64,000 bases of DNA, taken from assembly GCA_016946835.1 (NCBI GenBank), contig JACVTC010000013.1:483001-547000 (forward strand), written 5' to 3'. Positions 3,889 to 40,030 of the stretch are shown here, piece by piece. The notes beneath the pieces are model-generated. The model saw only the letters and a program-made list of their open reading frames with translations. It did no database searches and had not been told where the DNA came from. The DNA comes from Neocallimastix lanati (nom. inval.). Taxonomy: Eukaryota > Neocallimastigomycota > Neocallimastigomycetes > Neocallimastigales > Neocallimastigaceae. Each line of letters opens with the position of its first letter. Position 1 is the first letter of the stretch. Position numbers and translations under genes: made by a program.

Positions 3889-4262
3889 TACATTCTTCAT
3901 CTAACTCTGCGCTGAAGGAAGGAAAGCATCATCACAAATTTTAGGAGGATTCAGTTAGAACTGCAAACTAATATATACAACCGACTTCTACATCAAGGAA
4001 ATGACAATAAGATACCGTACGAAGAATTAAACAACGAAAAGGTCGATTATCAAAGGTTGAAAGTGTTCGGATGTCAAGCGTTCTTTTATGTTCCGAAACC
4101 TTTTAGAAGAAAATTTCAAGGAAAATTACTAGATATATTCCTTGGATATGATAAAGTAAATCCAAAGGCATATATAATTTATGATACTAAAAATAATAGA
4201 ATTGTATTATCAAGAACAGTTTAAATCTATGAGGATATACTCCTATATCAATTCCAGAAAAA
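3889..4262 (+). pseudogene. Ty1/copia integrase C-terminal remnant
   Basis: The translation follows the end of the integrase core and the C-terminal region of the intact Copia-I pol in this window (aligned with 46218-50738). Recognisable pieces are the EDSVRTAN block, KVFGCQAFFYVPKPFRRKF and DIFLGYDKVNPKAY. The Trp codon before EDSVRTAN is now TAG, the frame changes near 3963, and a TAA falls at about 4222 just before IYEDI. The catalytic DDE part is absent, so this is a dead fragment. Confidence 0.8.
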
Positions 4263-18155: not shown

Positions 18156-18324
18156 TGTTAAAATATAGTAAATAAAATTATACATTATGCTTTATTATAA
18201 AATAAAATTAAATAAAATACATGTAATAATTATTCAGAAAATGATTCTTCTTTATTAATAAAATATTATTAAATAAATAAAATATATTATATAAAATAAT
18301 TAATCTGAGCTTCACTCATTGTCA
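18156..18324 (+). mobile_element. Copia-III 5' LTR
   Basis: 169 bp, TG...CA, preceded by the TATTT target copy and followed directly by the primer-binding site GATTAAGAGTTTC. Confidence 0.9.
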
Positions 18325-18341
18325 GATTAAGAGTTTCATGA
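18325..18341 (+). promoter_or_regulatory. Copia-III primer-binding site (tRNA-Lys half type)
   Basis: GATTAAGAGTTTCATGA abuts the LTR. Copia-I and Copia-II carry GATTAAGAGTCTC and GATTAAGAATCTC at the same place. The complement, ...GAAACTCTTAATC, has the anticodon-loop sequence CTCTTAA expected of tRNA-Lys(CUU), so an internally cleaved tRNA probably primes, as in Drosophila copia with initiator tRNA. Confidence 0.65.
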
Positions 18342-18492
18342 AAGAGACCATAAATATATTTATATAATATTATATTTTTAAAAAAAAATTACTATATTCA
18401 AATTTAAATTTATTTTATAAAATAAATAAATATATAATTAATTTATTAAATAATTAAATATAAAAGTAAATAAATAAAATTTTATTAAAAAT

Positions 18493-19480
18493 TTGATGCT
18501 TAAAATCATGGGAAGAAAAAGAACTCAAGAAACAGAAATCTCCGAAATTAGTTCCACTTCCTCTTCATCAACCCCTACTATGAATAAAAATGAAAACATT
18601 AATAAAGATGAGGATAATGTTCCTCAAAATGAAATTTTATTTCAAAATTATGTCTATAAAGATTTATTAATTAAATCCGTATTTAATTACAAAGATTTTA
18701 AATTAAATACCTCAAATTTTGAAGATTGGTTTATTGAATTAAAACGTCATCTAATTGCATAAGATTACGACGAATATATTGAAAAAGAATTTGTGTATGA
18801 TGACATGACTAGAAAGCAAATAAAATATGATAACGCAGTTCAATCAATAATATCTGGTAGCTTAGACTTAGAAACAAAGGCTTATCTAAAAGGTTGTAGG
18901 ACTGCATATCAAATGATTGATAGACTTAAAAAACAATTCTACAAATCAGGAGAATCCTTATTAAATTTATTAATGCAAAAAATCAAAATTTTAGAAATTA
19001 ATAATAACAATTATATTCTATATCTCAATGAATTAAAAAATCTATTTGAACAATATGATATAGAATGTGTCAAACTAAATAAAAACAACTAACTGAAGAA
19101 AGTAAAATCATCTATGCTTGCGCTAAATTTAAAAACATTGGATTTAATTTTACATTAACTTACAAATATAAAAAATTTAATGAACTTTATGATGATTTGC
19201 AAAAAATGAGAAATCATGAAGAAAGAATCAACAATTATCTAAACACTCAAATTAATAATAATAATGAAAATAATAACAAAAATAATAAAATTAATTATAT
19301 TTCAAATAATAGCAAGCAAACTATATACAAAAATAATAATAATCAAAATAAACCTAATAATTCAAGAAATAAAAACAATAAAAATATAAAAAGCAAACAC
19401 TGTCTCCTATGTAAAAAAGATGGTCTATTATAGAAGAATGTTATTATAATCCATTCAATAAAAATTAAAATACAATAAAT
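18493..19480 (+). pseudogene. gag: Copia-III gag
   Basis: Gag starts at about 18493 and reads through NTSNFEDWFIELKRHLIA, where a CAA has become TAA (18760). It continues as DYDEYIEKEFVYDDMTRKQI and SLLNLLMQKIKILEINNNNY. A frameshift near 19092 is followed by an Asn-rich tail and one zinc knuckle near 19390 (CLLCKKDG...EEC) that is itself broken by a frameshift at about 19425. Gag would form the particle shell and bind the RNA. Confidence 0.8.
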
Positions 19481-19499
19481 AAATATAATAATAATAAAA

Positions 19500-20437
19500 A
19501 TAATATTAACAACAAAAATAAATTTCACTCTTATAAGATAAATGAAAATAATTCAGAGTATTCATCAGACACAAATGATGATTACATTAACTTTACCGGA
19601 AATATATCTGTATTACAAAACAATATTAAATGTAACAATTTAAAAACAAATAATAAATATACAACATGAATTATAGATAGTGGTACAGGATTAAATTTAA
19701 CCAACAACATAAACCAACTAAATAATATTCAAAATTCTAATGATAAAACAATAATTTATCCAAATGGTACCACTGATAAAATAAATTGTTCTGGTACATA
19801 TTATGGAAGTTTCAAGAATAATAAATTCAAATTGTCAAATGTTCATTTTGCATCAAACATTAAAAACAATCTAATCTCAATACATCATATCTTAAGTCTT
19901 CGCAATAAAATAATTATGGAAAATATCAATAAAAAAGATAGATAACAAATAATTAATAAAGATAATAATATAATCGCCAATATTTATGCAAATGATGAAA
20001 ATTTATTTACATTTAATACTATTTCAAATATCAATAGTATTAATGTTGATATTCAAAGTAATAATTATGACAATTATTCAAAATTTAATATTCACAATGT
20101 AGATTATTCACTTTGGCATTCAAGGTTAGGACATTTCAATAATTATAACAATATTAAAGAATTTATTATTAACCATACTTCTTTTCACAATAAAAAAGAA
20201 TGTCCTAAATGCAAAATCAGTAAATTGAGGAGAAAACCTTTTTCTGCTTCTGATTCTTTCACAACTGAACCTTTAGAATTGGTTCACACTGATGTTGTGG
20301 GTAAACTAGAAACTTCATTTCAAGGATATAACTACTATCTAACTTTTCTAGATGATTTTTCTCGCAAATGTTGGATTTATCTTTTAAAAAATAAATCAGA
20401 TGTCTATGATAAATTTGTTGAATTTTATAAATTAACT
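19500..20437 (+). pseudogene. pol: Copia-III protease, pre-integrase and integrase start
   Basis: IIDSGTGLNLTNNINQL is the protease active site; the preceding Trp is now TGA (19668). A TAA lies near 19944. YSLWHSRLGHFNN and CPKCKISKLRRKPF form the integrase zinc finger. LVHTDVVGKL carries the first catalytic Asp and FLDDFSRKCWIYLL follows. The reading stops at EFYKLT, where provirus A begins. Comparison with the related minus-strand copy at 35761-36198 shows that about 14 codons are missing between here and 30298. Confidence 0.85.
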
Positions 20438-20893
20438 TGAATAGGGTTTTTGTTGAACTCATTCTTATATACCTGATATTAGGATGGTTACTAGGGAAAG
20501 GTTGGTTAGCTTCAGGGGGATATTCTACATCAAAATATCTTAGATTTCTCGAATTAATTGGACCGTCAACATAGTTTAGGTAAGAGTGTATATGATCCAA
20601 AGCAATATCGCCGTTGTGATTTTTTTCTTTGCTTACAATAAATTCGATATTCTTCTGTTTATTTTCAATCATTAGAGCAACATCACTTTTAGTAATAATT
20701 CCCCTGGTGTCTGCATAAGTTAACAAGAATAATTCTTGTTATTTATACGGAAACCATCACTATTAGATCCTTTTCTCTTCTTACTAGCGGTAGCTGAATC
20801 CTTGCCTTTAGAAACCCTTTTTCTCTTGGAGCTTGAAGCCATTTCAGTAGCAGTAACAGCGGTAGCAACCTTTTGAGCGTTATCGAAAGTCAT
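20438..20893 (-). pseudogene. rep: provirus A replication initiator protein (Rep), truncated and frameshifted
   Basis: The start is MTFDNA at 20893, followed by a basic Ser/Lys-rich leader (SSSKRKRVSKGKDS). A one-base-type frameshift near 20730 precedes rolling-circle motif I (LTYADTRG). Motif II is DHIHSYLNYVDG, with the metal-binding H-x-H. A second frameshift lies at about 20475 (IRYIRMSS) before motif III, and the gene is cut at about 20438 against copia sequence, so the helicase half is absent. Family role: a HUH endonuclease that nicks the origin hairpin and starts rolling-circle replication in the nucleus. Compare the longer copy at 38304. Confidence 0.85.
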
Positions 20894-20932
20894 TTTTCAA
20901 AAAAAAGTTTATAAAAATTATAAGTTAAAAAA

Positions 20933-20979
20933 TGACTAAGTGGTTTGATCTTAAATATTATGATTAAACCACTTAGTCA
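20933..20979 (-). promoter_or_regulatory. origin-like hairpin of provirus A
   Basis: A perfect 14-bp stem (TGACTAAGTGGTTT) with a 19-nt loop lies between rep and cap. On the rep strand the loop contains ATAATATTTAA, shared with provirus B (38218-38264). CRESS origins carry a TAxTATTxx-type nonanucleotide in such a loop, which fits TAATATTTA. Rep would nick after TATT in this model. Confidence 0.8.
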
Positions 20980-20987
20980 ATTAGACT

Positions 20988-20999
20988 GTTTATATACTT
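20988..20999 (-). promoter_or_regulatory. TATA-type promoter element for rep (provirus A)
   Basis: On the minus strand GTATATAAAC lies about 95-105 bp upstream of the rep ATG and just outside the hairpin. Provirus B has GTATAAAAGA at the same place (38199-38208). Confidence 0.6.
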
Positions 21000-21346
21000 T
21001 TTTTACAATGATATAAAACAAATTTGTGTAGCAACATATTTGTATATTTAATAATAATTATTAAATATTAAATTTATATCTCTTTTGTCAATAATAATAT
21101 TTGAACTAATTTCTTATTCATATATTATTCAATATTTATATATATATTATTCATTATAATATGAAATATATTAAATATATTAAATTAAATAGTTAATTTC
21201 TTCTAAATATATATAATAAGAATATTATTATATATATAACTTAAATATTCATATTTATTTTTAAAATTTATATTAAAAATACATAATACTTCTATATATT
21301 ATAATATATAATATAATGAAATAGTTTTAGTTATTTTAATTATAAT

Positions 21347-21636
21347 TGTTAACAATCAAGATTATTATATAATAATTATATAATAACATAAATTTAATTT
21401 AATAAAAATGTATATACATATAAATTTATTCTAACATATGACGCCACATGTATTTATTCATAATTTAATTTTATTCATATATTTATGTAAACAATTGTTA
21501 TACTTTAAAAACTGTACTCTCTCTCTTTTATAAAAATCTTAAATAAATAAAGTGTTAATAATAATTATTAATACAAAACAATATTAAAGGTATTATTTTA
21601 TCTTTGTGTCTTTTTTCTACCGATAGTCGGTTAATA
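21347..21636 (+). mobile_element. Copia-II 5' LTR
   Basis: 290 bp, TGTTAACA...TTAATA, preceded by the ATAAT target copy. It contains a CT-rich block (ACTCTCTCTCTTTT) near the middle, also present in the 3' LTR. Confidence 0.92.
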
Positions 21637-21650
21637 GATTAAGAATCTCA
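21637..21650 (+). promoter_or_regulatory. Copia-II primer-binding site (tRNA-Lys half type)
   Basis: GATTAAGAATCTCA abuts the LTR. Its complement contains TTCTTAA, the loop of a CUU anticodon, with the stem partner GAGA/TCT. It is the same type as in Copia-I and Copia-III. Confidence 0.65.
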
Positions 21651-21749
21651 AAGAAGACCAGAGACTAAAATATCATAAAAAAAAAAAAAAAAAAAATTTT
21701 AATAAAAATTTTTAATATATTAATAAATTAAAAATTTATTATTTTTTCC

Positions 21750-22643
21750 ATGAGCGAGATTAATAATTATATAATATTAAAAGGTACAGATAATTATGCA
21801 TTATGGTTTAATTATCTGTGCAATGAACTAAGAAAGGAAGGTTTATTACACTACATTAAAGAAAATGTATTGAATAACGTGGATATTGATAATCCACCAA
21901 ATGATAAGAAAGAACAAATTAAAAAGGATGCAAAAGTTGTATCTAAAATTCTAAATACAATAAATATAAATATCCATAGAGAAATAGTAGGACTAAATAC
22001 TTCCTATGAAATTATATCAAAATTAAAGAAGAAATATGGTAGTTCAACTACTGATTCATCATACTGGTTGAAGAAATTAAACTCAATAAAAACAACTAAT
22101 AAACAAGGAATTCTAGACGTGATAGATCAGTTAAAAGATATTTTTGAAAACATGGATAATATAAATTTCCACTTATCTGAAGATGAAAAATTAAGATACC
22201 TATTTAACGCTATGCCAGAAGATTATACAAATAAATTTACTCTTACTGATATAGATAATTTTACTAGTATTAGTAAGAAAATAGTGGAAGACATAAACAA
22301 ACTTGCTTATATCCAACAATGGAACTTAAATAATCAACCTATGGATGATCCAATGGAAATAGACTATGCTGGTAAATTCCAAAAGAAGAATAAAAATAAC
22401 AATAATAGAAACTACCAGACAAAGAAAGCAGATAAAAAATACTGTCATATATGTAATAAAAATAATCACAACACTTTTGATTGCTGGTTTAACGCGTTAA
22501 ATAAGAACAGTAAATTTAATAAATATGTAAACCAAGAGTATTCCAAGGAAGAGAATACAAACAATAGTAAAAGTAATAATAATAATCAATCATCTTCAAA
22601 GAAAAAAGGAAAAGGAACATATTATACAGGAATAATTAAATAA
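21750..22643 (+). CDS. gag: Copia-II Gag, 297 aa
   Basis: An intact open frame, starting at ATG after an A-rich leader (poly-A run near 21677-21696). The N-terminal YALWFNYLCNELRKEGLLHY and the central ETIVG-like and LRYLFNAMPEDYTNKF blocks are typical of copia Gag (UBN2 type). A zinc knuckle CHICNKNNHNTFDC lies at about residues 231-244, followed by an Asn/Ser/Lys tail. Gag builds the virus-like particle in the cytoplasm and packages element RNA. It is the only intact copia gag here apart from that of Copia-I. Confidence 0.9.
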   Translation: MSEINNYIILKGTDNYALWFNYLCNELRKEGLLHYIKENVLNNVDIDNPPNDKKEQIKKDAKVVSKILNTININIHREIVGLNTSYEIISKLKKKYGSSTTDSSYWLKKLNSIKTTNKQGILDVIDQLKDIFENMDNINFHLSEDEKLRYLFNAMPEDYTNKFTLTDIDNFTSISKKIVEDINKLAYIQQWNLNNQPMDDPMEIDYAGKFQKKNKNNNNRNYQTKKADKKYCHICNKNNHNTFDCWFNALNKNSKFNKYVNQEYSKEENTNNSKSNNNNQSSSKKKGKGTYYTGIIK

Positions 22644-22765
22644 TATAATATAAATGAACAATACAATGCTAATGTAGATTATGAAGATATAAAGATCATG
22701 TTTAAAAAGGACACTAATAAATCTCATAAATCAGTATATTTAATTATAAAAATAACGCGTCAAAA

Positions 22766-23160
22766 GTGTTAAAGAACATTTCTTCAATTAATTTCTATGA
22801 TAAATCCTACTGGTTATATGATTCTGGAGCAGGAGAACACTTAACAAACAATAAAAACTTATTAAAAAACTACAAAAAAGAAGAAATTGAATTAACCTGT
22901 GCTAATAATACTGTATGCACCTTTGAAGGTTATGGAGAATTTTCTTTCTTTATAAATAATTATAAAATTATTATACTCAAAAGATGTTGCCAAGAACATG
23001 ATAAGTGGTGTGGAATTAGCTAAATTATGCATTAAGACTCTAACTGAATCAATTAATAATGATACAGTTAAAATTACTTTAATGGATCATTTGTATCAAA
23101 TAGTCGCAATGAATTAATTATTACAGCAATACATGATAATTCAATAAAAGAAAATATAAA
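22766..23160 (+). pseudogene. pol: Copia-II protease region, frameshifted
   Basis: YWLYDSGAGEHLTNN is a good aspartic protease active site. The frame then breaks near 22975: the expected continuation (KNMISGVELAKLCIKTL) lies in another frame and the called frame ends at 23023. A further stop follows near 23117. The connection from gag to this frame is also out of phase, and no clear recoding site is visible. Confidence 0.8.
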
Positions 23161-24283
23161 AAATAATATAATGGCAATAAATAAACTAAATAATGAAAGT
23201 AAATTATTATGGCATAGAAGATTAGGCCATTATTATTTAGAAAATTTAAATGAATATTTAGATATTCATAATATTAAAGAATCAGAATGAATTGACTGTA
23301 AAATTGCAAAATTAAAACGATTCCCACATAACAAAGAAACTCCAAAAGCAACAGAAATATTAGAAATAATACATTCCGATATTATTGGACCAATTAATGA
23401 TTCAATTACTGGGAAAAGATTTATACTAACAGTAATTGATGAAAAATCACATAAAAGTTGGATTTTTCTGATGAAAAGTAAATCAGAAACAATTGATTTA
23501 CTTATTGATTTTATTAAATATTTAAATAATATTTTTAATGATAAAAAAGTAAAAAATTTTAAGTCTGATAATGCTAAGGAATATAGAAATAAAAAGTTAA
23601 CTAGATTTTGTAAAGATAACGGAATAAATAAAATTTATTCTCCTCCCTACAATCCAGAAAATAATGGTTTAGCAGAAAGGTTTAATCAAACCATTATTTC
23701 TTGTACTAAAACTTTGCTATATTGGAGCAAATTATCTGAAAATTTTTGGGATTTCGCTATCCAATATGCAAATTATTTATATAATAAAACTCCGCATCTT
23801 ATCTCTGAGAAAACTATCCCAGATGAAGTTTTCTTCAATGAAAAAGTTAAAATTGATCATATTAGGACTTTTGGATGTATTACCTATTATAAAATTTTTG
23901 ATCAAAATAAATCTAAGTTTTCACCAAATTCAAAGAAAGGAATTTTCCTTGGATTTAGTGAAGTTACTAACTCTAATATTGTTATGGATTATGAAGATTA
24001 TAAAATCCATAATGTTAGAGAAATAATATGTAAAGAAAATGAGCCAGCAAAACTCTCACTATCTAATTCAGTAGGTGAAGAAAATGGATATCCATCCTTT
24101 TTAAATTTTGACTTTAATTTTAGCAAGACAAACAGGATAAAAAGTGGTACAATCCTTAATTTTCCTGGTCAAAATGACCATAAAAACTTGGATTCAAATT
24201 CAGTAGAAAATGAAAATAAAAATAATTCTGAAAAAGAAAATTCTGGTGATATTAATAATACTGATTTTAATACTATTACTAAT
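23161..24283 (+). pseudogene. pol: Copia-II integrase
   Basis: LLWHRRLGHYYLENL starts the zinc finger. A TGA at 23288 precedes IDCKIAKLKRFPH, and the second Cys of that pair is missing. The catalytic triad is present: IHSDIIGPI, KSDNAKEYRN and NNGLAERFNQ. From 23471 the frame is open to the 775-bp insertion at 24284. YKIFDQNKSKFSPNSKKGIF is the C-terminal module, followed by an Asn/Glu-rich linker. Confidence 0.88.
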
Positions 24284-25058
24284 TATAAAGTGTTTTATGA
24301 TAAAACAGATTATAATAATACAAAAACACTATATTAAATAAATTCTTTTTATTAAAAATATTTGGTTTATTAAAAATCTTATATTAAATAGTTCTTATTA
24401 TGTTATGAACTATCAAATAATAAAAAATAACAATTACATTTTTTCAATTAAAGAAAATTTACAATATTTATATTTTTTCTTAATTATATTCTAATATATT
24501 AAATTAATTTAATTTACATATATTCAATTTAAATATTAATAATAATTAATTTTATAAAATAATAAAATATTTAAACTAAAACTAATTATAGTATAATTTT
24601 CTAATTAACTATTTTTTATTATAACTATTTTTTATTATAACTATTTAAATATTTTAACTAATTTAAAATTAAACTAAAAACTATTAATAATATTAAACTA
24701 AACTATTTAAATAAATAAAAATTTAACAATAACAGATTTAGCGAATTTTTTGTGACTAAATTATTTAATTTCATATTTAATAAATATAAATTTAAATTTA
24801 AATAATTTAAGTTCTAATTTATAATTTTAAATTTCAATTATTAATTTAAGGAGAAATAATTATTTAAAGTATTTAATTCATGTACGTAAATTTGATGTAT
24901 GATTTTTCGTTTACATAAATTTATTGAAATATGCTTTAATTCATAAATTAATGTAAATTACATAATTTTATTCAAGATATCGTGGAAAAAATTTCATACA
25001 TAAATTAATGTAATAATGAATTACATAAATTTATTAAAGATATAAAGATATCTTTACA
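24284..25058 (-). mobile_element. 775-bp solo-LTR-like element inside Copia-II pol
   Basis: Read on the minus strand it begins TGTAAAGATATC and ends CACTTTATA. CTAAT flanks it (24279-24283, 25059-25063). Removing the element and one CTAAT joins the integrase and RT frames exactly, so the insertion is clean. Related copies: 42088-42769 and 45834-52406 (interrupted); a more distant one lies near 52560-53253. It has no open frame. The 5-bp duplication and TG start suggest a solo LTR; a MITE is the alternative. Confidence 0.85.
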
Positions 25059-27550
25059 CTAATACTAAAAATGATATTGAAAATACATTAAATGAAAACC
25101 ATAATAATGATGTAAATAAAAATGAAAATAAAATGAAAAAGAAAAGCAATATTGAGGTAACCCAAGAAAAGGAAATAGAAGATCCTAATAATTTTTCTGA
25201 TGATGAATTTTTTGACGCAGTGGATGAAAAAAATTTTATTAATAAAAATTTTCAAAATTTTGATGAAAAATCTGAAAATGTAAATATTGAAGAAAATTAT
25301 AATAATTTAAGTTCTGAAAAAAATTTTTCTACTGAAAACTCTAATTCATATGAAAATAATAAAATTTCTGATGACAATAATAATAATTCCATAAATGGAA
25401 ATAATATTAATAATCATGAAATTAAAAATTTGAATAATAATAATAAAATTCAAAATGAATCAAATAATAAAGAATATACAGATAATATTTTACAAAATGT
25501 AAATTTCCATATATTAAATAAATCAGAATTAAATCCAAAATTCAATATTAATAACAATCAGTTAAATAATAATATATTACAAAATAAAAGTGTAAAAACA
25601 CCTTCTCTTAATGTAAACAAAAGGATAAAACTAAACTTTAAAAGAGGAAGAAGGCAACTTGTTATTGACAAAAAAAAAAATGTTTCACAAGATATATTAA
25701 ATTTTAATAAAAATTTAAATATTAATAATAATTTTAATTTAAATAAAAATTTAAATAATAAATTATTAAATAATAAAATCTCAAATAACAAAAAGAATAA
25801 AAATATAAATAAAAATAATTTATATTATAATAATTCTGAAAATGCTTCCTATATTGATAATAGCCAAAGTAATGTTGCTTTTATTAAAAATAATTCAAAT
25901 ATCATTAATAACAATATTAATTTAAAAAGAAATTTTTCTGAAGTTGATTATGAAGAGAGTTTTTTACGGCCTATTAAATACAAAAGAATAAATAATAATA
26001 GATATGTTGCTACCATTTCCACAAATGTTCCTCTTTCCTATACTGAAACTATAACATGTAAAAACCACGAAGAATGGGAAAAAGCAATTCAGGATGAACT
26101 TAAAAATTTATATGATAATAATATTTTTACTTTTGTAAAGTATATTCCTAAAGGAAAAAATATTATTTCTTCAAAGTGGGTTTTTGCAAATAAATATAAT
26201 GGTGAATATATTATTACCAAAAGAAAAGCACGTCTTGTAGCTAGAGGTTTTAGACAAAGACGTGGTATCGATTATGATTTGACCTATTCTCCGACTCTCA
26301 ATACAGACACCTTAAAACTTATTTTCTCCCTTGCTGCAAAATACAAATGGCCAATTCAACAATTAGATATTAAAGCTGCGTATCTCAATGCAGTTTTAGA
26401 CAAAGAAATCTATATGTCTATTCCGCCAGGAGATCCTAACTTTGGGAGGGGATGGTGGAAGTTGAATAAGGCATTGTATGGGTTGAAGCAATCTGGCCGA
26501 CAATGGAACAAAACTTTATCAAAATTTTTAATCAAAAACGGATATACTCAATTAATAACAGAAAAATGTATATTCGTTAAGAAAAATGAAAAAGGTGATG
26601 TATTAGTTATAATAGGTGTATATGTAGATGACATGGTCATTACAGGTATAAAAATAGAAATACAAAATACAATTAATATTATAAAGAATAATTTTAAAAT
26701 ATCCAAATCAGAACAAATAAATTATATTCTTGGAATTGAAGTAAAGAAAATTGATAATAAATATATAATCTCTCAAGTAAATTATATTAATAAGATTTTG
26801 GAAAATTTTAACATAAAATATACAAGAAAAGTAAGTACTCCATGTGTTGGTGATAATATCAAAGGTGAAAATAATAAACCCTTTGATAGAACAGTCTACA
26901 AAAGTGCCATAGGCATGTTAATATATTTATCCAAATGTACTAGACCTGATATTTCTTTTGCAGTACATAAAGCTGCAAGAAATTCAGAAAATCCTATTAT
27001 TACAGATTGGGTAAAAGTTACTAATATATTAAAATATTTAAATAACACAAAATATTATAAAATATGTTATGATGGTGAAGGTGAAATTATCGGTTACACT
27101 GATTCGGATTTCTCTGGAGACATCAAAGATAGAAAATCAACTTCAGGGCATATTATCCTAATGGGTAAAAATCCTATATGCTGGTATTCTAAAAAACAAA
27201 CAATAGTAGCTACATCGACAGCCGAAGCTGAATATATCAGTACTTCAGAATGTGTAAAAAAGGTTTTATATTTTAGAAATATTCTTAAAGAATTATTTAA
27301 CTTTAAAAAACCAATAACAATTTATACTGATAATATAGCAAGTAAAACAAATATAGAAAATGATGAAATAAACACTAAATTAAAGCATATTTCAATCAAG
27401 TATTTTTTCAACAAAGATAATATTGAAAAAGGAAATATAAAATTAGAATATATTGAATCTAAACAAATGTTAGCTGACATACTCACTAAAAATAAAAATG
27501 GAAAAGATATGACGAACTTCGCAAACCAAGTTTTTATACATAAAAACTAG
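25059..27550 (+). CDS. pol: Copia-II reverse transcriptase-RNase H (805 codons open from 25133)
   Basis: After an Asn-rich linker with basic clusters (KRIKLNFKRGRR; RPIKYKRI), the RT begins with NHEEWEKAIQDELKNLYDNN. ARLVARGFRQRRGIDYDLTY, QQLDIKAAYLNAVLD, KLNKALYGLKQSGR and GVYVDDMVITG show all catalytic Asp residues. RNase H follows: GYTDSDFSGD, TSTAEAEYIS, IYTDNIASK and KLKHISIKY; the last acidic position is Ser here. It stops at 27548-27550 just before the polypurine tract. It has no start of its own in an active element, being part of pol. Confidence 0.9.
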
Positions 27551-27563
27551 TTTGAGGGGGGAG
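27551..27563 (+). promoter_or_regulatory. Copia-II polypurine tract
   Basis: TTTGAGGGGGGAG lies between the pol stop and the 3' LTR and primes plus-strand synthesis. Confidence 0.88.
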
Positions 27564-27852
27564 TGTTAACAATCAAGATTATTATATAATAATTATATAA
27601 TAACATAAATTTAATTTAATAAAAATGTATATACATATAAATTTATTCTAACATATGACGTCACATGTATTTATTCATAATTAATTTTATTCATATATTT
27701 ATGTAAACAATTGTTATACTTTAAAAACTGTACTCTCTCTCTTTTATAAAAAACTTAAATAAATAAAGTGTTAATAATAATTATTAATACAAAACAATAT
27801 TAAAGGTATTATTTTATCTTTGTGTCTTTTTTCTACCGATAGGCGGTTAATA
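27564..27852 (+). mobile_element. Copia-II 3' LTR
   Basis: 289 bp. It differs from the 5' LTR by three substitutions and one T deletion, and is followed by the ATAAT target copy. Confidence 0.92.
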
Positions 27853-28221
27853 ATAATTAAATATATATAGTTGATATTATTTATTATATTCATATTTATT
27901 ATATAATTATATTCTTATATATTTAACTTTATTATTCTTATTTTCATTTTAAGAATTATATAGTTATATTTATTATATTTATTATTTTAATATATATTTA
28001 TTATATATTATACTATACTCCAATATAATATATTTTAAATGTATATTTATTATTATTAATAATTAAATTATTATAAAGATTCCTAATAACTACTCTTCTT
28101 GATTGTAGTTTAGAGAAGACCCTTGGTTAATTGGGTTTTTAAATTAAAATATATTAATAAAGGTTAATTAAATATAACGATACTATTAAAAATTAGTAGC
28201 ACATAAAAGTCCGGCATATCA

Positions 28222-28492
28222 ACAACTCACACACGTGACACGAATGGCTTCAAAAATTTTTTTTTTCAAATTAAATTATTCATATATTGATTGAATTAAA
28301 AACTAATTTTTTTTTTCAATCACCGCTATGGCGACCAATTAAATTTTTTTGTGGCTTACTATAAATAGTAAATATTTTTAGTTTATTTTAAATTTCTTCT
28401 TTAATTTTTTAATTTACAAAATTTCGATAGTTTGGATTATTTTATTTATAAATCAAATATTTATTTACCTTTTATTAATAATAAAAATAGAA
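28222..28492 (+). promoter_or_regulatory. cap upstream region of provirus A, with TATA element
   Basis: Homologous over its whole length to the reverse complement of 37923-38190 in provirus B (shared blocks CACACACGTGACAC, GGCGACCAAT, TTTTGTGGCTTACTATA, AATTTCGATAGTTTGGATTA). TATAAATAG lies at 28360-28368, 125-133 bp before the cap ATG. A CACGTG palindrome sits near 28232. Confidence 0.7.
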
Positions 28493-29014
28493 ATGGAAAG
28501 AACTACCACTACAACATCAACCAGATCTGGAAGAAAAAACAAATATAATGTTGAAAATACCCCATTTAATGGAAAATTAGGAACAGCATTACCATATGGT
28601 GATAATTCAATTATGAATGCCCCAGAATTTCAACAATTTAGTTATACAGTAGTTCCAGCAGTTGAATCTGAAGGTGTACGTAAAGCAGGAAAATTTACTA
28701 TTAGTGTTTCTATTGTTGGAAATACTGAAGGTATTCTTTATTGGGCATTAATTTATGTTCCTAAAGGATATTCAGCTAGAAACTTTTTCGCTGAACAACA
28801 AGCAAATCCACCATTATATGAACCTTCTACTAATGTTTTGGCTTCCGGAATGAATGATACTAATGCAGGACCTGTAAGAATTTACTCAACATTATTCAAG
28901 AATTTAAATACAGGTGATTCTATTGTGTTCCAAGTTGCTGCTCAAAAAACTGAAGGAATTACTGCTAACACTTTTGTTGCTGGTTTAGTTAGATATGCTA
29001 TATGTTATAATTAA
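28493..29014 (+). CDS. cap: CRESS-type capsid-like protein, 173 aa (provirus A)
   Basis: An intact frame with ATG after an A-rich context. The N-terminus is Thr/Arg/Lys-rich (TRSGRKNKYNVEN). The body is beta-rich, with YWALIYVPKGYSARNFFAEQ, PLYEPSTNVLASGMNDTNAG, then VRIYSTLFKNLNTGDSIVFQ. This pattern (a YWALxYVPxG strand, a YEPxxxVLxSG turn and a terminal LNxGD strand) resembles single-jelly-roll capsids of circular Rep-encoding ssDNA viruses. The family call is from memory of the pattern; a profile search would settle it. It would form a small icosahedral shell. The homologue at 37446-37922 has a nonsense codon. Confidence 0.75.
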   Translation: MERTTTTTSTRSGRKNKYNVENTPFNGKLGTALPYGDNSIMNAPEFQQFSYTVVPAVESEGVRKAGKFTISVSIVGNTEGILYWALIYVPKGYSARNFFAEQQANPPLYEPSTNVLASGMNDTNAGPVRIYSTLFKNLNTGDSIVFQVAAQKTEGITANTFVAGLVRYAICYN

Positions 29015-29119
29015 TTTAATCTAATTATTTAGTAAATTATTTAAAATGTAATATTAATAATTATGGGTATGGCTATTAATATATTACAAAAATTAATAAA
29101 GTTTATTTTTTAAAAAAAC

Positions 29120-29204
29120 TATAAATACCTGTGTTTTTCTTAAATAATTTTAGTGTTTATTTTTCTTGTTATTTTATTTTTTTTATTTTAATTATATATC
29201 AAAA
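29120..29204 (+). promoter_or_regulatory. TATA element and leader of ORF2
   Basis: TATAAATACCTGTGTTTTTC at 29120-29139, followed by TTTTAGTGTTT and TATATATCAAAA just before the ATG. The leader of ORF3 repeats this pattern, so each gene seems to have its own promoter. Confidence 0.65.
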
Positions 29205-29653
29205 ATGGCTGCAATAACAGATGGTATTGTTTATAGGCATGCTACCACTACCACCACTAGTACGGTTACGAATAAGTTCAATTAATATTAAATGCAACAA
29301 ATCATTATATTGAATTTGATATTAAAAAAGTTGAAATTTATTTTAGTATGAAAAAAACATCTTCTTCTCCCTTCACTTATACCGAGCCTTATGTATGGTC
29401 AATAGTTTTTGGTACTCCTGCTCAATGGAATTCTTATAGCACAATTTCTTACGGGAATTATCAACCTAATTTAGCTGATGGTAATTTAGTATGTGCAGGT
29501 ATTGGAAATGGTTATAATAATACTTTTAATATAGATAATGGTAAAATTATACTTCCAAGACAAACAGCTTTAGGGTTTATTATAGAACCAGAAGATAAAA
29601 CATCAGGTGCTACGTATGATTGTGAAGTTATGGTTCATTATGATAATTATTGA
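29205..29653 (+). pseudogene. provirus A ORF2, probable second structural protein, one frameshift
   Basis: ATG at 29205 (MAAITDGIVYRHATTTTTS), Thr-rich like the capsid N-terminus. The frame ends after 26 codons at 29283. A second frame, open to 29653, continues with NATNHYIEFDIKKVEIYFS and later QWNSYSTISYGNYQPNL, NIDNGKIILPRQTALGFIIE and VMVHYDNY. A single-base loss near 29280 explains the break. The composition suggests a beta-sandwich. I recognise no family; a capsid paralogue is the best guess from position and promoter. Confidence 0.6.
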
Positions 29654-29740
29654 TAAAATAATTAAAATAATAAAAATGTAATTAATTAAAATTAATTAAA
29701 TTAAATTTAAAAATAAATAAAATTTATTTTTATAAAAAAG

Positions 29741-29815
29741 TATAAATATGTGTATTTTTCTTGTTATTTTTTAAAATTAGTGTTTTTATTTTTATTTATT
29801 TATCAAAATTTTATT
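29741..29815 (+). promoter_or_regulatory. TATA element and leader of ORF3
   Basis: TATAAATATGTGTATTTTTC at 29741-29760, then TTAGTGTTTTTATTT and TATCAAAA before the ATG. It is closely similar to the ORF2 leader, as if one promoter had been duplicated. Confidence 0.65.
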
Positions 29816-30301
29816 ATGGTTTCTGAAACTAATAGAACGGTTAAAAGATATCATTATGAATGTATTGATAGTAATGATATTACAACATTAGATAGAAAAT
29901 TAGCTATTAGAGAATGGATTATAGGTTATAATGTAGGAGGGGTAAGGGTGAAATTAAAAAATATTTCGTTCGAAAGCGTTAGAAGATCAACAAATCCACC
30001 ATATGATCCTCCATTTCTTGTTTACTTTATTGTTATAAGAAATGGATATCATAATATGCTTACACAATTCAGGTTTAATGATGGTTCAGAAAATAATATT
30101 CCATTTGCCTTTTTTTATGATGGATATGATACCGTTAAGAGATATAATATAAACAAGGAATTTATTTTATGTAGAGGTGATACCTTATATTTTATTTTAA
30201 AGTCTATTTCTGATAGTTCTATTCCTGAAAATGATAAATATTACGTTTTAGTTAGAAGAAGAGTTATCATATCTTTAATAATTAATAATTTATTATTTTA
30301 A
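29816..30301 (+). CDS. provirus A ORF3, probable third structural protein, about 161 aa
   Basis: I chose the ATG at 29816 (MVSETNRTVKRYHYECIDSN) because the upstream ATG at 29750 overlaps the TATA box. The protein is beta-rich: FLVYFIVIRNGYHNMLTQFR, then YNINKEFILCRGDTLYFILK. The GD(S/T)-hydrophobic-x-F strand near its end parallels NTGDSIVFQ in the capsid, hinting at a shared jelly-roll fold. The stop coincides with the junction to copia at about 30298, so the last residues may be altered. No family recognised. In a circular genome it would converge on rep. Confidence 0.6.
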   Translation: MVSETNRTVKRYHYECIDSNDITTLDRKLAIREWIIGYNVGGVRVKLKNISFESVRRSTNPPYDPPFLVYFIVIRNGYHNMLTQFRFNDGSENNIPFAFFYDGYDTVKRYNINKEFILCRGDTLYFILKSISDSSIPENDKYYVLVRRRVIISLIINNLLF

Positions 30302-31205
30302 TGAAACTGAATACATAAATAAAAATGTTATTTCGTTTTTAAATAATCACGGAATTAAATTTATTCACTCTATTCCTGGATATCCTCAACAAAATGGTTG
30401 TGCTGAACGATTAAATCAAACAATAAATAATTGTGTTAAAACACTTTTAAATTCTGCTAAATTACCTATTTATTTTTGGGATTCTGCCGTTCAATGTACT
30501 GCCTTCTTATATAATTCAAATCCTCATTCTAGTATTAATTTTAAAATTCCTAATGAACTATTCTTTAATAAACCTGTTGATATTTCTCATTTTAAAGTAT
30601 TCGGTTGTAAAGCATTTTTCTTTAATAATCATAAAACAAATAAATTTGAAAATAATTCGAAACAAGGTATTTTTCTTGATTATCCTGAAAATTCTTCTGG
30701 GTACCGAATTTTAGATATTTCTACTAACTCTATCATTACTGCTAGAGATGTTTATTTCATGGAAGATATTCCTGGTACTATTGACACTTCCTTTTTCTCA
30801 TCGAAAACTATTGATTCTTTATTCATTTACTCAAATTTATCGATTGAGGGGGAAAGTGCAAATATACAATCGACAAATTCTAATATCAATAATAATAATA
30901 ATAATAATATCAATTATAATAATAATAATATTGATGATAATAATATTAATGATAATAATAACAATATAAACAATAATATAAAAAATATTAACAATTTTTC
31001 AGATAGCGATATTAATAAAAAAAGAAGAATTCAAGATGATGAAGACTCAGGCGATGAATCAGACACCCAAACATTAAATATAAGAAAAGAAATATTATCA
31101 AAAAATAAAAACATTAATAAAAAACATAAAATTTTCAATATTATGACACAATGTCCAAGTACATATGAAGAAGCTATTATTTCAAAAGATTCTAAAAATG
31201 GAACA
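30298..31205 (+). pseudogene. pol: Copia-III integrase catalytic end and linker
   Basis: Resumes at NETEYINKNVISFLNNHGIK, where only the Glu-Tyr side of the second catalytic block remains. It continues GYPQQNGCAERLNQT with the third acidic residue, HFKVFGCKAFFFNNHKTNKF, then YRILDISTNSIITARDVYF. The reading frame shifts near 30750 and an Asn/Asp linker follows (to 31205), with the basic cluster NKKRRIQDDE. TYEEAIISKDSKN marks the start of the RT region. It is the direct continuation of 20437. Confidence 0.85.
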
Positions 31206-32523
31206 TAGCTATAAAAAATGAAATTAAAAATGTAATGATGGTAGTCAATATTAAAGATATACCAAAAAATACAAATATTATAGATACAAGATGGGTTTTA
31301 GCAAAAAAAATGATAATACTAAAAAAGCCCGATTAGTAGCAAAAGGTTGTCAGCAAAAGGAAGGTGAAGATTTTATTTCAACATATTCACCTACATCACA
31401 ATCTGATAGTTTAAGAATTACCATCGCAATAGCTTCAATAAATAAATGGAATTTAAAACAATTAGACATAAAAGCGGCATATTTAAATGCTGACCTTAAT
31501 GAAACAATTTATGTTGAAATTCCAAAAGGAGAAAAAAATTATAATAAAAATAAAGTATGGTTGTTGAAAAAAGCACTATATGGTTTAAAACAGGCTGGAC
31601 GTATGTGGAATGAAGAAATCATTAATTATTTAAAATCAATCGGCTTTAAACAATATAAATCAGACAAATGCTTATTTGGAAAATATAATAAAGGAAATAA
31701 ATTAATAGGGTTATTAACATTATACGTTGACATTTTAATAACTGGTGAAGATTATGAAATCAAAAATATAATTAAAAAATTAAAAAATAAATATACAATT
31801 TCAAAAGAATCTGATGCCAGAAAAATTATTGGAATAAATATTTATAAAATTAAAAATGTTTATAAAATAAATCAAGAAGATTATATAAATAAAATTATTA
31901 ATAATTATAATATGAATAAAACTAAAATAATAAAATATCCATGTAGAAAAATTTCAAATGAAGAAAGAAAAAATGCAAAACCTGTAGATGTTGGAAAATA
32001 CAAATCACTTTTAGGTTCACTATTATATATTGCAATAAAATCTAGACCAGACATTACATATGCAGTTAACCAAGCATCAAGAAATTGTGAACATCCAACA
32101 GCTATAGACTATAAAGCATTGCTACTGATATTACAATATTTAAAATCTACAATAAATAAATCAATATACTATAATGGAAAAAATAGATTAGTTGGATTTT
32201 CAGATGCCGATTATGCTAATGATGAAGCCACTAGAAGATCTGTAAGTGGATATATATTCTTACTTGGAAATATTCCAATTTCCTGGAAATCACAAATTCA
32301 AAGAAATGTAGATAATAAAGCTTGTATAGCAATAGCTGAAGATGAAAATGCTAAAGGTAGATGCAAACATATTGATACTAGATATAAATTTATTCAAGAA
32401 AAAATAAAAGAAAAGAATATAAAATTAGAATATATTAGCACAAATGATATGTTAGCTGATCCTTTAACAAAACCAGTATCCGGTATTAACATTAAGAAAT
32501 TTAACGATATAATTTTTGATAAT
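31206..32523 (+). pseudogene. pol: Copia-III reverse transcriptase-RNase H, catalytic codon lost
   Basis: IDTRWVLAKKN is followed by a frameshift at an A-run near 31300; the frame is then open to 32523. ARLVAKGCQQKEGEDFISTY, QLDIKAAYLNADLN and KKALYGLKQAGRMWNEE are intact. The active-site box reads LYVDILITG: one Asp codon of YVDD is deleted in frame. In RNase H, YADADYAND-type text is followed by an internal deletion (SWKSQIQRNVDNKACI), removing the TAEAE box. The enzyme is therefore dead even where the frame is open. Confidence 0.9.
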
Positions 32524-32602
32524 TAAAATATAATATAAAAAAAAAAATAAATAAAATAAAAATAAAAATTAATAAAATAAAATAGTTCTAATAAAGACAT
32601 AA

Positions 32603-32613
32603 TGTAGGGGGAA
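32603..32613 (+). promoter_or_regulatory. Copia-III polypurine tract
   Basis: GTAGGGGGAA directly before the TGTTAAAATATAG of the 3' LTR. Confidence 0.8.
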
Positions 32614-32786
32614 TGTTAAAATATAGTAAATAAAATTATACATTATGCTTTGTTATAAAATAAAATTAATATAAAATACATGTAATAATTATTATTCAGA
32701 AAATGATTCTTCTTTATTAATAAAATATTATTAAATAAATAAAATATATAATATAAAATAATTAATATGAGCTTCACTCATTGACA
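32614..32786 (+). mobile_element. Copia-III 3' LTR
   Basis: 173 bp, partner of 18156-18324 with four substitutions and two small indels. Followed by TATTT, the second target copy. Confidence 0.9.
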
Positions 32787-33417
32787 TATTTTATATTATT
32801 TTATTTTAATTATATAGTTATTAGTTAAACTAATTTAGCCTTTAAAATATAATATTAAATTATTAAAAAAGCCCTTTTCCAATAAAAGAAAACAAACAGA
32901 AGAAGGTGTTATAAAATAATAATAAAAAAAAATTAATACTTATTTAGTAATAATTAAAAAAAAAAAAAAATTATATAAATACGATAAAAATTAATATTTT
33001 TTTATTTTAGAGGGTTTTTTAAAAAAAAGGAAGTTTAAAAGGAATTTTATTTTTAAAATATAACGAGAAGAAGTTATATTTACATAAGGTGTTTTAATAA
33101 ATAAAAAGTAAACAAAAGAAAATTTTTCATTTTAGTACAAATCATTTTATTATTTTAATAAATAATAAATTTTATAATAAATAAGGTTTATATTAAAAAT
33201 TTTTGTAAATTATTGAGTTTTAATAGTCGAGCTTATCTAAAATACTACAATATATAAAATAAATTAATCTATTTAAATAATTCAATAAATACATATATTA
33301 CAATAAATTCTTTAATATTCAAATAATAATGATAATAATAAAATTATATATATATTTTGACACTACTTAAATTTTTATTTTATTTTATAATAATTTTTTT
33401 TTTCAGGAAAATAAATC
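32787..33417. other. AT-rich region; remainder of Copia-IV LTR and gypsy leader
   Basis: It should begin with the rest of the Copia-IV 3' LTR, since Copia-III lies inside that LTR, and ends just before a gypsy gag. I could not locate the LTR end or a gypsy LTR. No gene is visible. A-runs are common (for example near 32957-32973). Confidence 0.4.
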
Positions 33418-37445: not shown

Positions 37446-37922
37446 TATTCCATTAGTATCTTGTGCAGCAACTTGGAATACAATAGAATCACCTGTATTT
37501 AAATTCTTAAATAATGGTGAATAAATTCTTACAGGTCCTGCATTTGTATCATTCATACCGGAAGCTAAAACATTAGTAGAAGGCTCGTATAATGGTGGAT
37601 TTGGAATTTGTTCAGCGAAAAAGTTCTTAGCTGTATATCCCTTAGGAACATAAATTAATGCTCAATAAAGAATAGCTTCAGTATTTCCAACAATAGAAAC
37701 GCTAATTGTAAACTTACCAGCTTTACGAACACCTTCTGAATCAATTGCTGGAACCACTGTATAACTAAATTGATGAAATGTTGGGGCATTCATAATAGCA
37801 CCATTTCCATATTGAAGTGATGTTCCTAATTTTCCATTAAAAGGCGTGTTTTGTACGTTATATTTGTTTTTTCTTCCAGTTCTGGTAGATGTAGTTGTAG
37901 TTTTAGTTGTAGTTCTGGCCAT
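37446..37922 (-). pseudogene. cap: provirus B capsid-like protein, nonsense and truncated
   Basis: Start at 37922. Very close to provirus A cap: RTGRKNKYNVQNTPFNGKLG, VVPAIDSEGVRKAGKFTISV. The Trp codon of the YWAL strand is TGA at about 37662, after which the same frame continues through PLYEPSTNVLASGMNDTNAG and NLNTGDSIVFQVAAQ. The last roughly 20 residues are replaced by copia sequence from about 37446. The N-terminus contains the same Thr/Arg-rich arm. Confidence 0.8.
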
Positions 37923-38198
37923 TTTTATTATATATTATATTTATAAGGTAAATAAATATTTTGTTTATAATTAATATAATCCAAACTATCGAAATTTTGG
38001 AAATTAAAAAATTAAAGAAGAAATTAAAATAAATCAATAAATGGTTTCCTTATATAGTAAGCCACAAAAAATTTCATTGGTCGCCAAGGCGGTGTTTAAA
38101 AAAAAAAATTTGGATTGTAAACCAATCAACATATAAATAATTTAATTTGAAAAAAAAATTTGAAGCCATTTGTGTCACGTGTGTGATTTGTAAAAAAA
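37923..38198 (-). promoter_or_regulatory. cap upstream region of provirus B
   Basis: Reverse-complement homologue of 28222-28492. On the minus strand CTATATAAGG (38049-38058) takes the place of the TATAAATAG of provirus A. CACACGTGACAC lies near 38174. The empty site for the LTR of provirus A is at its right edge (38180-38195). Confidence 0.7.
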
Positions 38199-38199
38199 G

Positions 38200-38207
38200 T
38201 ATAAAAG
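38200..38207 (+). promoter_or_regulatory. TATA-type promoter element for rep (provirus B)
   Basis: TATAAAAG, about 100 bp before the rep ATG and immediately outside the origin-like hairpin. Two GACTAA repeats (38211 and 38219) sit between TATA and stem and could serve as Rep-binding iterons; that is inference. Confidence 0.55.
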
Positions 38208-38217
38208 ACGGACTAAT

Positions 38218-38264
38218 TGACTAAGTGGTTTAATTATAATATTTAAAATTAACCCACTTAGTCA
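38218..38264 (+). promoter_or_regulatory. origin-like hairpin of provirus B
   Basis: 14-bp stem (TGACTAAGTGGTTT, one mismatch) and a 19-nt loop, the same stem and loop lengths as in provirus A. The loop carries TATAATATTTAA. It lies between divergent rep and cap, as CRESS origins do. Confidence 0.8.
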
Positions 38265-38303
38265 ATTTGATTTTTATAATTAATAAACTTTTTTTTTAAA
38301 AAA

Positions 38304-39225
38304 ATGACTTTTGATAACGCTCTCAAGGTTGCTACCGCTGTTGCTGCTACTAAAATGGCTTCTGGCTCCAAAAGAAAAAGATCTTCCAAAGGTAAAGAAT
38401 CAGCTACCGCTAGTAAGAAGCAAAAGAAAAATACTAATGGGGGGTTCCGCATAAATAACAAGAAAGAATTCTTATTGACTTATGCAGACACCAGGAGTAT
38501 AACTACTAAAAGTGATGTTGCTCTGATGATTGAAGAAAAACAGTTGAATATTGAATTTATTGTATCTAGAGAAAAAAATCACAATGGAGAAATTGCTTTG
38601 GATCATATTCATGCTTATCTAAATTATGTTGACGGTCCTGTTAATTCTAGAAACGTTAGATACTTTGATGTAGAATATCCCCCTGAAGCTAACCAACCTT
38701 TTCCTACTAATCATCCAAATATTAGATACAAGAATGAATTTAACAAAAACCCAATTCAAGCAACAATTGACATGATTAATTATGTTACAAAGGAAGATAA
38801 AGACCCTCTTTGTAATTTTGATTGGAAAAAAAGACTTGATGATTTAGAAAGTCAATTGAAAACAAAGGTAAAGGCAAAGAAAATTTGGAAATTCCTTTTT
38901 TTGAATGGGTTAATGAAGATCCACGTCCTGATGGTGAAGAAGTAAAAAGACGTATTAGATCTAATAAAGTATGGTATGATCAATATTGCTTGAAATTTAT
39001 TAATTTTAATTCTTTGATTAAAGCTGAATTTGATTGCCGCAGGGGGAATGAAAAACCTAAAGCCGTTTATGATAGAAAATTTATTATTCCTTTAAAACTT
39101 CGTAATTGGATTAACTCTTTTGAAGAATGGCGTTTAAATAAATATGATCGTCCTAGAGGTTTAGTTCTTACAGGTCCTCCCAAGTCTGGAAAAACAAGTT
39201 TTATCGAAAGGCTTTTTTATTTTTA
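38304..39225 (+). pseudogene. rep: provirus B replication initiator protein (Rep), one frameshift, 3' truncated
   Basis: Start at 38304 with a basic leader (SGSKRKRSSKGKESATASKK, a nuclear-localisation-like pair of clusters). HUH endonuclease: motif I FLLTYADTR, motif II ALDHIHAYLNYVDG, a YFDVEYPPEANQPFP block and motif III INYVTKEDKDP with the catalytic Tyr and Lys. A frameshift near 38875 joins to a second open frame (38885-39226) with EIPFFEWVNEDPRPDGEE and superfamily 3 helicase Walker A GPPKSGKTSF. The gene ends there, so Walker B and later motifs are lost. The motif set resembles geminivirus/genomovirus-like Reps more than circovirus Reps, in my judgement. Confidence 0.88.
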
Positions 39226-40030
39226 GATATATCGTTGTCTCCTGTGAAGGGTGTTTTTCTTTTTCGAGTATTGTTTATGCTGAATTTTTCTAACATATTT
39301 TCAATAAAGCTTTTCTGAAAAATAATAACTATTATTTTTTTTTCTACTTTAATCCCTAAAAATATATTCAATTGGTCCGAAATTCGATATTTTGAATTTT
39401 TTTTTAATTTTTGATATTATATCTTTGATAAATTTTATTTCACTAGCAATAACAATATCATCAACATAGAGTCCAATTATACATTTTGTTTTATCATTTA
39501 TTGTATGTTTGAATATGCATTGTTCGGCTTTAATTTGTTCAAAATTATTATTAATTAAAAATTTTCTTATTGTTTCATACTACTATCTACCGGACTGTTT
39601 AAGGTCATATAATGCTTTGTTAAGTTTCCAGTATCCCCTCCCAAAATTTATATCTCCTTTAGGAATGGTAGTGTAAATATCTTTGTTGAGAGGAGCATTA
39701 AGATAAGCAGCCTTAATATCAAGTTGAAAGATGTCCCAATGAAAAGCAGCAGATAATGCAAAAATGAGTTTTAGACTATCAATATTTAAAGTAAGGGAAT
39801 AAGTTAGATCGTAATCAATACCCCATTTTTGACGGAAATCTCTGGCAACTAGACGGACTTTATATTTGTAAATAAAATTATTACTATCCTTCTAAGTAGC
39901 AAAAACCCATTTCGTAGAAATAATGTTTTTACCTGGAGGAACTTTTGAAGCAAAGGTCATCTTATTTGAATATAAATTATTTAATTCATCTTTAATGGCG
40001 TTAATCCAGTGATTTTTATTTATCAATTAA
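39226..40030 (-). pseudogene. Copia-II-like reverse transcriptase, minus strand
   Basis: From about 40020 leftward: NAIKDELNNLY, KVPPGKNIISTKWVFAT, VRLVARDFRQKWGIDYDLTY, FQLDIKAAYLNAPLN, GRGYWKLNKALYDLKQSGR, CIIGLYVDDIVIASE. The YVDD box is intact; stops occur near 39583, 39895 and elsewhere. It ends at 39226 against provirus B with QKSFIENMLEKFS. RNase H is missing here. Confidence 0.8.

What the first reader, a model, noticed from the sequence alone, without database searches (positions are those of the whole stretch)
20438..30297. Endogenous CRESS-type virus with one capsid-like gene and two further possible structural genes
Seen: a Rep with HUH motifs, an origin-like hairpin, then three consecutive + strand genes (28493, 29205, 29816), each with its own TATAAATA element. 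Cap has the pattern of CRESS jelly-roll capsids; ORF2 has a similar Thr-rich N-terminus; ORF3 shares a GD(S/T)-x-x-F strand with cap. Typical CRESS genomes carry one capsid gene. A roughly 3-kb virus with tandem capsid-like paralogues and separate promoters would be unusual. Whether ORF2 and ORF3 are capsids is inference.
Basis: partly seen in the sequence, partly recalled or inferred. Interest (0 to 1): 0.92.

Follow-up and report, generated by a model that had tools for sequence, protein, structure and literature searches.

The report
Fossil fungal virus, three capsid-like genes
The genome of an anaerobic gut fungus holds broken remains of a small DNA virus that seems to have carried three different capsid-like genes in a row instead of the usual one, which could mean a more complex shell than such tiny viruses are thought to build.

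The parts
20439..20893 (-). Rep gene, N-terminal fragment only (endonuclease part to just past the HPNIRY stretch), one frame break; cut by the integration junction at 20439
   Evidence: tblastn to the better-kept Rep of copy 2 (88.5% over residues 56-142); 84% DNA identity to copy 2; Pfam Gemini_AL1 E 0.002 here, 4.5e-5 in copy 2
20933..20979 (+). origin-like hairpin; loop region holds AAATATTAT at 20953-20961, 8 of 9 letters of the CRESS nonamer NANTATTAC (consensus recalled)
   Evidence: a hairpin in the same place with a different stem sequence in another Rep lineage (L013, z -7.2)
21009..28221 (.). later insertion, not viral: LTR-like element TGATAT...ATATCA flanked by ACAA/ACAA, holding a copia element (LTRs 21347-21636 and 27564-27852)
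   Evidence: copy 2 and the C434 copy lack it; ACAA on both sides, single ACAA in copy 2; copia LTR divergence 0.014
28493..29014 (+). cap (ORF1), 173 aa, open, basic N-terminus; relatives in Anaeromyces, Piromyces and small metagenome contigs
29088..29180 (+). promoter-like spacer before ORF2 (TATAAATA at 29120), 71% identical to the spacer at 29709-29801 before ORF3
29205..29653 (+). ORF2, broken by a frame change; open homologue of 154 aa in Piromyces sp. E2 (69%)
   Evidence: structure of the homologue
29709..29801 (+). promoter-like spacer before ORF3 (TATAAATA at 29741)
29816..30301 (+). ORF3, 161-codon open frame whose last dozen or so codons are out of the family's frame; its stop codon is already retroelement
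   Evidence: structure
18156..20438 (+). host copia element, left part (5' LTR region from 18156, gag and first part of integrase)
30299..32790 (+). host copia element, right part (rest of integrase, RT, RNase H, 3' LTR region)
37447..39235 (.). second viral copy in the opposite orientation: cap (-, one stop, last 16 residues missing), hairpin (38215-38267), Rep (+, 38304-39226, frame-broken, cut in the helicase part); right limit approximate, no ORF2/ORF3

Best explanation
The locus is an integrated, partly deleted copy of a CRESS-type virus that infected an anaerobic gut fungus. Rep would nick the hairpin loop and drive rolling-circle replication. The three late genes each make a small protein of about 150-190 residues; ORF2 and ORF3 are single jelly rolls of the kind that build ssDNA-virus shells, and cap, the only one of the three with a clearly basic N-terminus, would be the DNA-contacting major shell protein. 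The likeliest role of ORF2 and ORF3 is structural, as further shell or vertex proteins. A broken linear piece entered a copia element by end joining (40 bases of target lost, no duplication, ends not at the origin) and then decayed. Shown: anatomy, junctions, linkage of the genes, past selection on cap and Rep, predicted folds of ORF2 and ORF3. Inferred: circularity, virion roles, mode of integration, that cap is a capsid protein.
Against: The two models come from alignments of 3 and 2 sequences; the five models of each range from pLDDT 44 to 67 and 55 to 72. Foldseek TM-scores on the model side are only 0.25-0.47 (ORF3) and 0.17-0.46 (ORF2) in the rows shown, and jelly rolls also occur outside capsids (TL1A, spore fibre proteins). 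No free circular genome was found. ORF2 and ORF3 relatives were found for only a few gut-fungus loci, not for the wider cap family, so three capsid-type genes may be a trait of a small clade, or the word-based search is too blunt. The Anaeromyces gene between cap and ORF3 was not seen. The C2 ORF3 tail was missed by the genome-wide search with P0024.
Confidence: 0.72

Rival explanations
1. One true capsid (cap) and two accessory jelly-roll proteins that are not shell subunits: for example spike, cement, movement-like or host-interaction proteins made by the virus.
For: In the sample (4 of 21 caps, 1 ORF2 and 2 ORF3 proteins) only cap has a clearly basic N-terminus: net +4 to +7 in the first 30 residues against +2 (ORF2) and 0 to +1 (ORF3); pI 8.9-9.7 against 5.0-6.3. 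In A. robustus cap is better conserved than ORF3 (75% against 50%). Fold lists include a phage cement protein and spore fibre proteins.
Against: Among the best VIA matches of both models are shell proteins of ssDNA plant viruses and of very small icosahedral viruses, over most of the chain.
Confidence: 0.2
2. ORF2 and ORF3 belong to a second small virus or satellite and were joined to the Rep-cap virus only at integration.
For: Copy 2 in the same window has Rep and cap but no ORF2/ORF3, and more cap relatives than ORF2/ORF3 relatives were found.
Against: Copy 2 is cut inside cap, so the region that would hold them is missing. ORF2 and ORF3 remains recur with Rep pieces in the C2 fossil, and cap and ORF3 have neighbouring gene numbers in A. 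robustus.
Confidence: 0.05
3. ORF2 and ORF3 are host or retroelement genes next to a viral cap.
For: The surroundings are dense in retroelements.
Against: The empty-site comparison puts all three inside the inserted piece; each was found at one or two places in a 199-Mb genome (lower bounds), whereas a 456-base stretch of the copia element gave 40 scored matches from 437 candidates; virus-type folds.
Confidence: 0.02
4. The copy is kept by the fungus for a use of its own, for example cap as an antiviral decoy.
For: Cap of copy 1 is still open over 173 codons while its neighbours are broken.
Against: The insertion is younger than its copia host, whose flanks are still 97-99% identical to relatives, so an open short gene needs no selection; no expression data were seen.
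Confidence: 0.05

Closest known systems
Geminivirus/genomovirus-like Rep insertions in fungi (PMC3198968; passages seen)
   Same: Geminivirus-type Rep sequences integrated and decaying in fungal genomes
   Different: That survey's table total is 302 Rep and 3 capsid insertions in 35 species; here cap and two more capsid-like genes came along
Gemycircularvirus in Pecoramyces ruminantium transcriptomes (PMC9501391, passages; tabulated in PMC10224137, passages)
   Same: ssDNA virus sign in an anaerobic gut fungus
   Different: Mentioned in one clause of a survey; no capsid set or genome layout in the passages I saw
Naryaviridae, Nenyaviridae, Vilyaviridae of Entamoeba and Giardia (PMC7493932, passages)
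   Same: CRESS viruses tied to gut eukaryotes through integrated copies
   Different: Rep plus one Cap (recalled); hosts are protists
Po-circo-like / bo-circo-like viruses of swine and cattle (PMC8307498, passages)
   Same: Multi-ORF CRESS genomes from guts; the authors suggested that ORF2 and ORF3 of one group may be capsid proteins
   Different: Their Rep groups with CRESSV2/Kirkoviruses; their capsid call rests on conserved N-termini and basic residues, no fold in the passages seen; sequence relation to the genes here not tested
Nanovirus FBNSV and geminivirus (AYVV, 6ek5, MSV) capsid proteins
   Same: Best or near-best structural matches of ORF2 and ORF3 (MSV for ORF2 only)
   Different: One capsid gene per virus (recalled); 5-16% identity; no significant Pfam or PDB sequence match
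Picornavirus VP1-VP3 (recalled)
   Same: Three different jelly-roll proteins in one pseudo-T=3 shell, the model for the novel case
   Different: RNA genome, one polyprotein; no evidence here on assembly

Membership tests
CRESS DNA viruses (Cressdnaviricota) | HUH endonuclease Rep | tested here: met
   Gemini_AL1 4.5e-5 in copy 2 (23.9 bits, just under the curated 24) and 1.2e-8 in C762 (35.4 bits); solved Rep domains 1.7e-4 and 1.2e-3 for C762, 0.022 for copy 2; motifs I, II and III seen by eye in copy 2
CRESS DNA viruses (Cressdnaviricota) | SF3 helicase domain in Rep | tested here: inconclusive
   Walker A-like GPPKSGKTS in copy 2 and C129 by eye; Pfam weak (C762: Gemini_AL1_M 4.8e-4 at 20.6 bits against a cut-off of 24, RNA_helicase 0.95)
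CRESS DNA viruses (Cressdnaviricota) | Hairpin origin with nonanucleotide NANTATTAC in the loop (consensus recalled) | tested here: inconclusive
   Hairpin found in copy 1, copy 2, C434 and C762; the nonamer fits 8 of 9 letters, last letter T not C (read)
CRESS DNA viruses (Cressdnaviricota) | Circular genome | tested here: inconclusive
   Copy 1 and the C2 fossil are consistent with different cuts of one circle; no free circle found
CRESS DNA viruses (Cressdnaviricota) | Single jelly-roll capsid protein | tested here: inconclusive
   Predicted jelly rolls for ORF3 and the ORF2 homologue; cap not folded
Genomoviridae | Genome about 1.8-2.4 kb (or 1.3-kb segments) with Rep and one CP (PMC10224137, passages) | tested here: not met
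   Viral part of copy 1 alone is 2647 bases with most of Rep missing, and it carries three late genes
Genomoviridae | Geminivirus-like Rep with a GRS element between motifs II and III (recalled) | tested here: inconclusive
   Gemini_AL1 match; a GRS-like stretch seen by eye only (RYFDVEYPP...HPNIRY)
Geminiviridae / Nanoviridae / Circoviridae | Capsid protein of the family by sequence | tested here: not met
   At E up to 1 no Pfam family matched cap, ORF2 or ORF3 or relatives P0026, P0024, P0005, P0008, P0010 and P0019; two chance-level non-viral families for P0021. Matches are by fold only
Three-protein pseudo-T=3 shells | Three different jelly rolls in one shell | not testable with these tools
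   Needs particles

The most novel reading that the evidence does not exclude
Cap, ORF2 and ORF3 are three different jelly-roll subunits of one shell, a picornavirus-like pseudo-T=3 capsid in a CRESS ssDNA virus, arisen by gene duplication or capture and letting the virus pack a genome of nearly 4 kb that would not fit the T=1 shell of a 170-residue protein.
Probability: 0.27. Interest if true: 0.92.

Novelty: new variant of a known kind. Interest (0 to 1): 0.74.

Why it matters
CRESS viruses are the standard example of a minimal virus: one Rep, one capsid protein. A lineage with three jelly-roll genes would show a simple ssDNA virus moving towards a multi-protein shell, a step otherwise known from RNA viruses, and would give a way past the genome-size limit of a one-protein shell. 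It also ties a little-studied set of gut sequences to anaerobic fungi, key fibre degraders of herbivores, as likely hosts, which can be checked in cultured fungi and rumen metagenomes.
Full report
WHERE IT IS. The window lies in a 199-Mb genome of 762 contigs. It is about 22% G+C (mean) and full of copia and Gypsy elements. The cap gene's closest named relatives are in Anaeromyces robustus (87% and 75%) and Piromyces sp. E2 (73%), so the host is a Neocallimastigomycete-like anaerobic gut fungus (inference); the genome carries no name.

ANATOMY OF THE LOCUS. A copia element (LTR pieces from 18156 and from 32614) is interrupted in its integrase gene. The left flank is retroelement up to 20438 and the right flank again from 30299: the 11 relatives compared (L046-L056, the best of 40 scored after the locus itself; 97.6-99.3% identical on the left, 97.0-98.0% on the right) run straight through and have 40 bases in between that are missing here. 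So 20439-30298 entered as one piece with a small deletion and no target duplication, later than the copia element itself. Inside it a second insertion, 21009-28221, starts TGATAT and ends ATATCA, is flanked by ACAA on both sides where the second viral copy has one ACAA, and holds a copia element with LTR divergence 0.014. What remains is viral: 570 + 2077 = 2647 bases.

THE VIRAL PIECE. On the - strand lies the N-terminal part of a Rep, cut at 20439 and with one frame break. Next is a hairpin with an 18-bp outer stem whose inner part carries AAATATTAT. On the + strand follow cap (open, 173 aa), ORF2 (frame-broken) and ORF3 (open for 161 codons, but with the family's C-terminus in another frame). 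A second copy at 37447-39235 has cap (-), hairpin and a longer Rep (+), cut in the helicase part and again frame-broken; its flanks differ from those of copy 1, so I take it as a separate insertion. The copies are 84-85% identical, with dN/dS 0.23 over 141 codons of cap and 0.125 over 87 codons of Rep, and third-position excess p of about 2e-5 for each. They therefore diverged as working virus genes before they were integrated. Rep of copy 2 against the C129 piece gives 0.26 (120 codons, p 0.006). By contrast a C434 copy differs from copy 2 by about 2% with dN/dS near 1 (9 changes; too few to weigh).

ARE ORF2 AND ORF3 VIRAL? Four points say yes. They lie inside the inserted piece. They were found at one (ORF3) or two (ORF2) places in the genome, not as a repeat family (counts are lower bounds). 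The second ORF2 place, on contig C2, is a decayed viral fossil: ORF2 tail 3866-4048 of L017, ORF3 tail 4079-4168, then Rep C-terminal pieces on the other strand at 5552-5051 and 6684-6604. That is the order expected if a circle reads origin, cap, ORF2, ORF3, then Rep from the other side, and it covers a part that copy 1 lost. The ORF3 tail alone is weak (E 6e-4 among the ORFs of the window and 14 loci; missed by the genome-wide search); its place next to ORF2 is what makes it credible. Finally, A. robustus has cap (BCR32DRAFT_247264) and ORF3 (247266, 50%) that both list a longest contig of 117,802 bases, and Piromyces sp. E2 has an open 154-aa ORF2 homologue (69%). The gene between the two in A. 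robustus was not seen. Of the 17 cap relatives that carry no gut-fungus name (P0004, P0005, P0007-P0021; P0013 is named from a Methanobrevibacter MAG), each lists a longest contig of at most 5071 bases, as expected for a small replicon, though short contigs are also common in metagenomes.

REP. Copy 2 and its C762 relative match Pfam Gemini_AL1 (4.5e-5, just under the curated score, and 1.2e-8); C762 matches two solved Rep domains (1l2m recalled as a geminivirus Rep), copy 2 only at 0.022. With the hairpin conserved in the second lineage despite a different stem, this looks like a rolling-circle replicon of geminivirus-like type.

HOW IT PROBABLY WORKED. Shown: a Rep-plus-origin module and three late genes in one orientation, the last two with related leader sequences. 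Inferred: circular genome of about 3.7 kb, rolling-circle replication, each late gene from its own promoter, and three jelly-roll proteins serving the virion. In the proteins computed, cap alone is basic (pI 8.9-9.7 in 4 of 21 caps), which suits a DNA-contacting shell protein; ORF2 and ORF3 have pI 5.0-6.3. Whether the three share shell positions, as in picornaviruses, or ORF2/ORF3 are vertex, spike or accessory proteins, cannot be decided from sequence. The integration ends are not at the origin, the target lost 40 bases, and the intergenic origin came along, which fits end joining of broken viral DNA rather than Rep-led insertion or an RNA intermediate.

AGAINST KNOWN THINGS. CRESS genomes are described as having two main ORFs, Rep and Cp (PMC8307498, passages). 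Geminivirus-like Rep insertions in fungi are known, capsid insertions rare (PMC3198968, passages: 302 Rep against 3 capsid). A gemycircularvirus sign in Pecoramyces is on record (PMC9501391, passages). Po-circo-like viruses have several late ORFs, two of which were suggested as capsids from conserved N-termini and basic residues (PMC8307498, passages), the nearest precedent I saw. I found no description of a CRESS virus with three jelly-roll genes in searches; this library lacks most subscription papers. I file it as a new variant of a known kind.

Noticed in passing
G000:C468:893018-894523 (-), L012:346-1851: A CRESS-type Rep of a second lineage, about 489 codons and fully open, with a DUF5906 match (4.3e-6); no cap match within the 8 kb read. 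Recent insertion or kept gene, unknown.
   Followed up: partly
L036 (C5), L037 (C145), L039 (C146), L041 (C24), L042 (C65), L013 (C762), L016 (C129), L017 (C2), L014 (C468) and others: A Rep helicase-part search gave 16 matches at 14 places in this genome, copy 2 included (weakest place E 1.4e-5); at least two lineages; C145 has two Rep pieces next to each other.
   Followed up: partly
L041 (C24) 4143-5207; L010 (C762) 1414-2949; window copy 1: Several Rep pieces sit inside LTR-retroelement integrase or neighbouring genes; on C762 the Rep frame runs on into Gypsy integrase as one 511-codon open frame. Not compared with the background density of retroelements.
   Followed up: partly
window about 38822-38945 and L009 about 1650-1683: Rep of copy 2 and of C129 both change frame in the same stretch between endonuclease and helicase parts, where the C762 Rep reads through. 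Chance, an A-rich hot spot, or an intron as in some geminivirus-like Reps (recalled).
   Followed up: no
window 28222-28341 and copy 2 38078-38202: The stretch between hairpin and cap with CACACGTGACAC is 84-85% conserved even in the otherwise distant C762 lineage; possible Rep-binding or promoter element.
   Followed up: no
L015 (C434) 3567-4420: Rep plus origin about 98% identical to copy 2 with dN/dS near 1 (9 changes): duplicate of an integrated copy or a near-identical second insertion.
   Followed up: partly
cap cluster P0001, ORF2 cluster P0025, ORF3 cluster P0022: The window's own proteins recur in clusters of 18, 15 and 9 contigs, ORF2 in its broken 101-aa form, so the break is probably real and not an assembly slip; sources are not named.
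   Followed up: no
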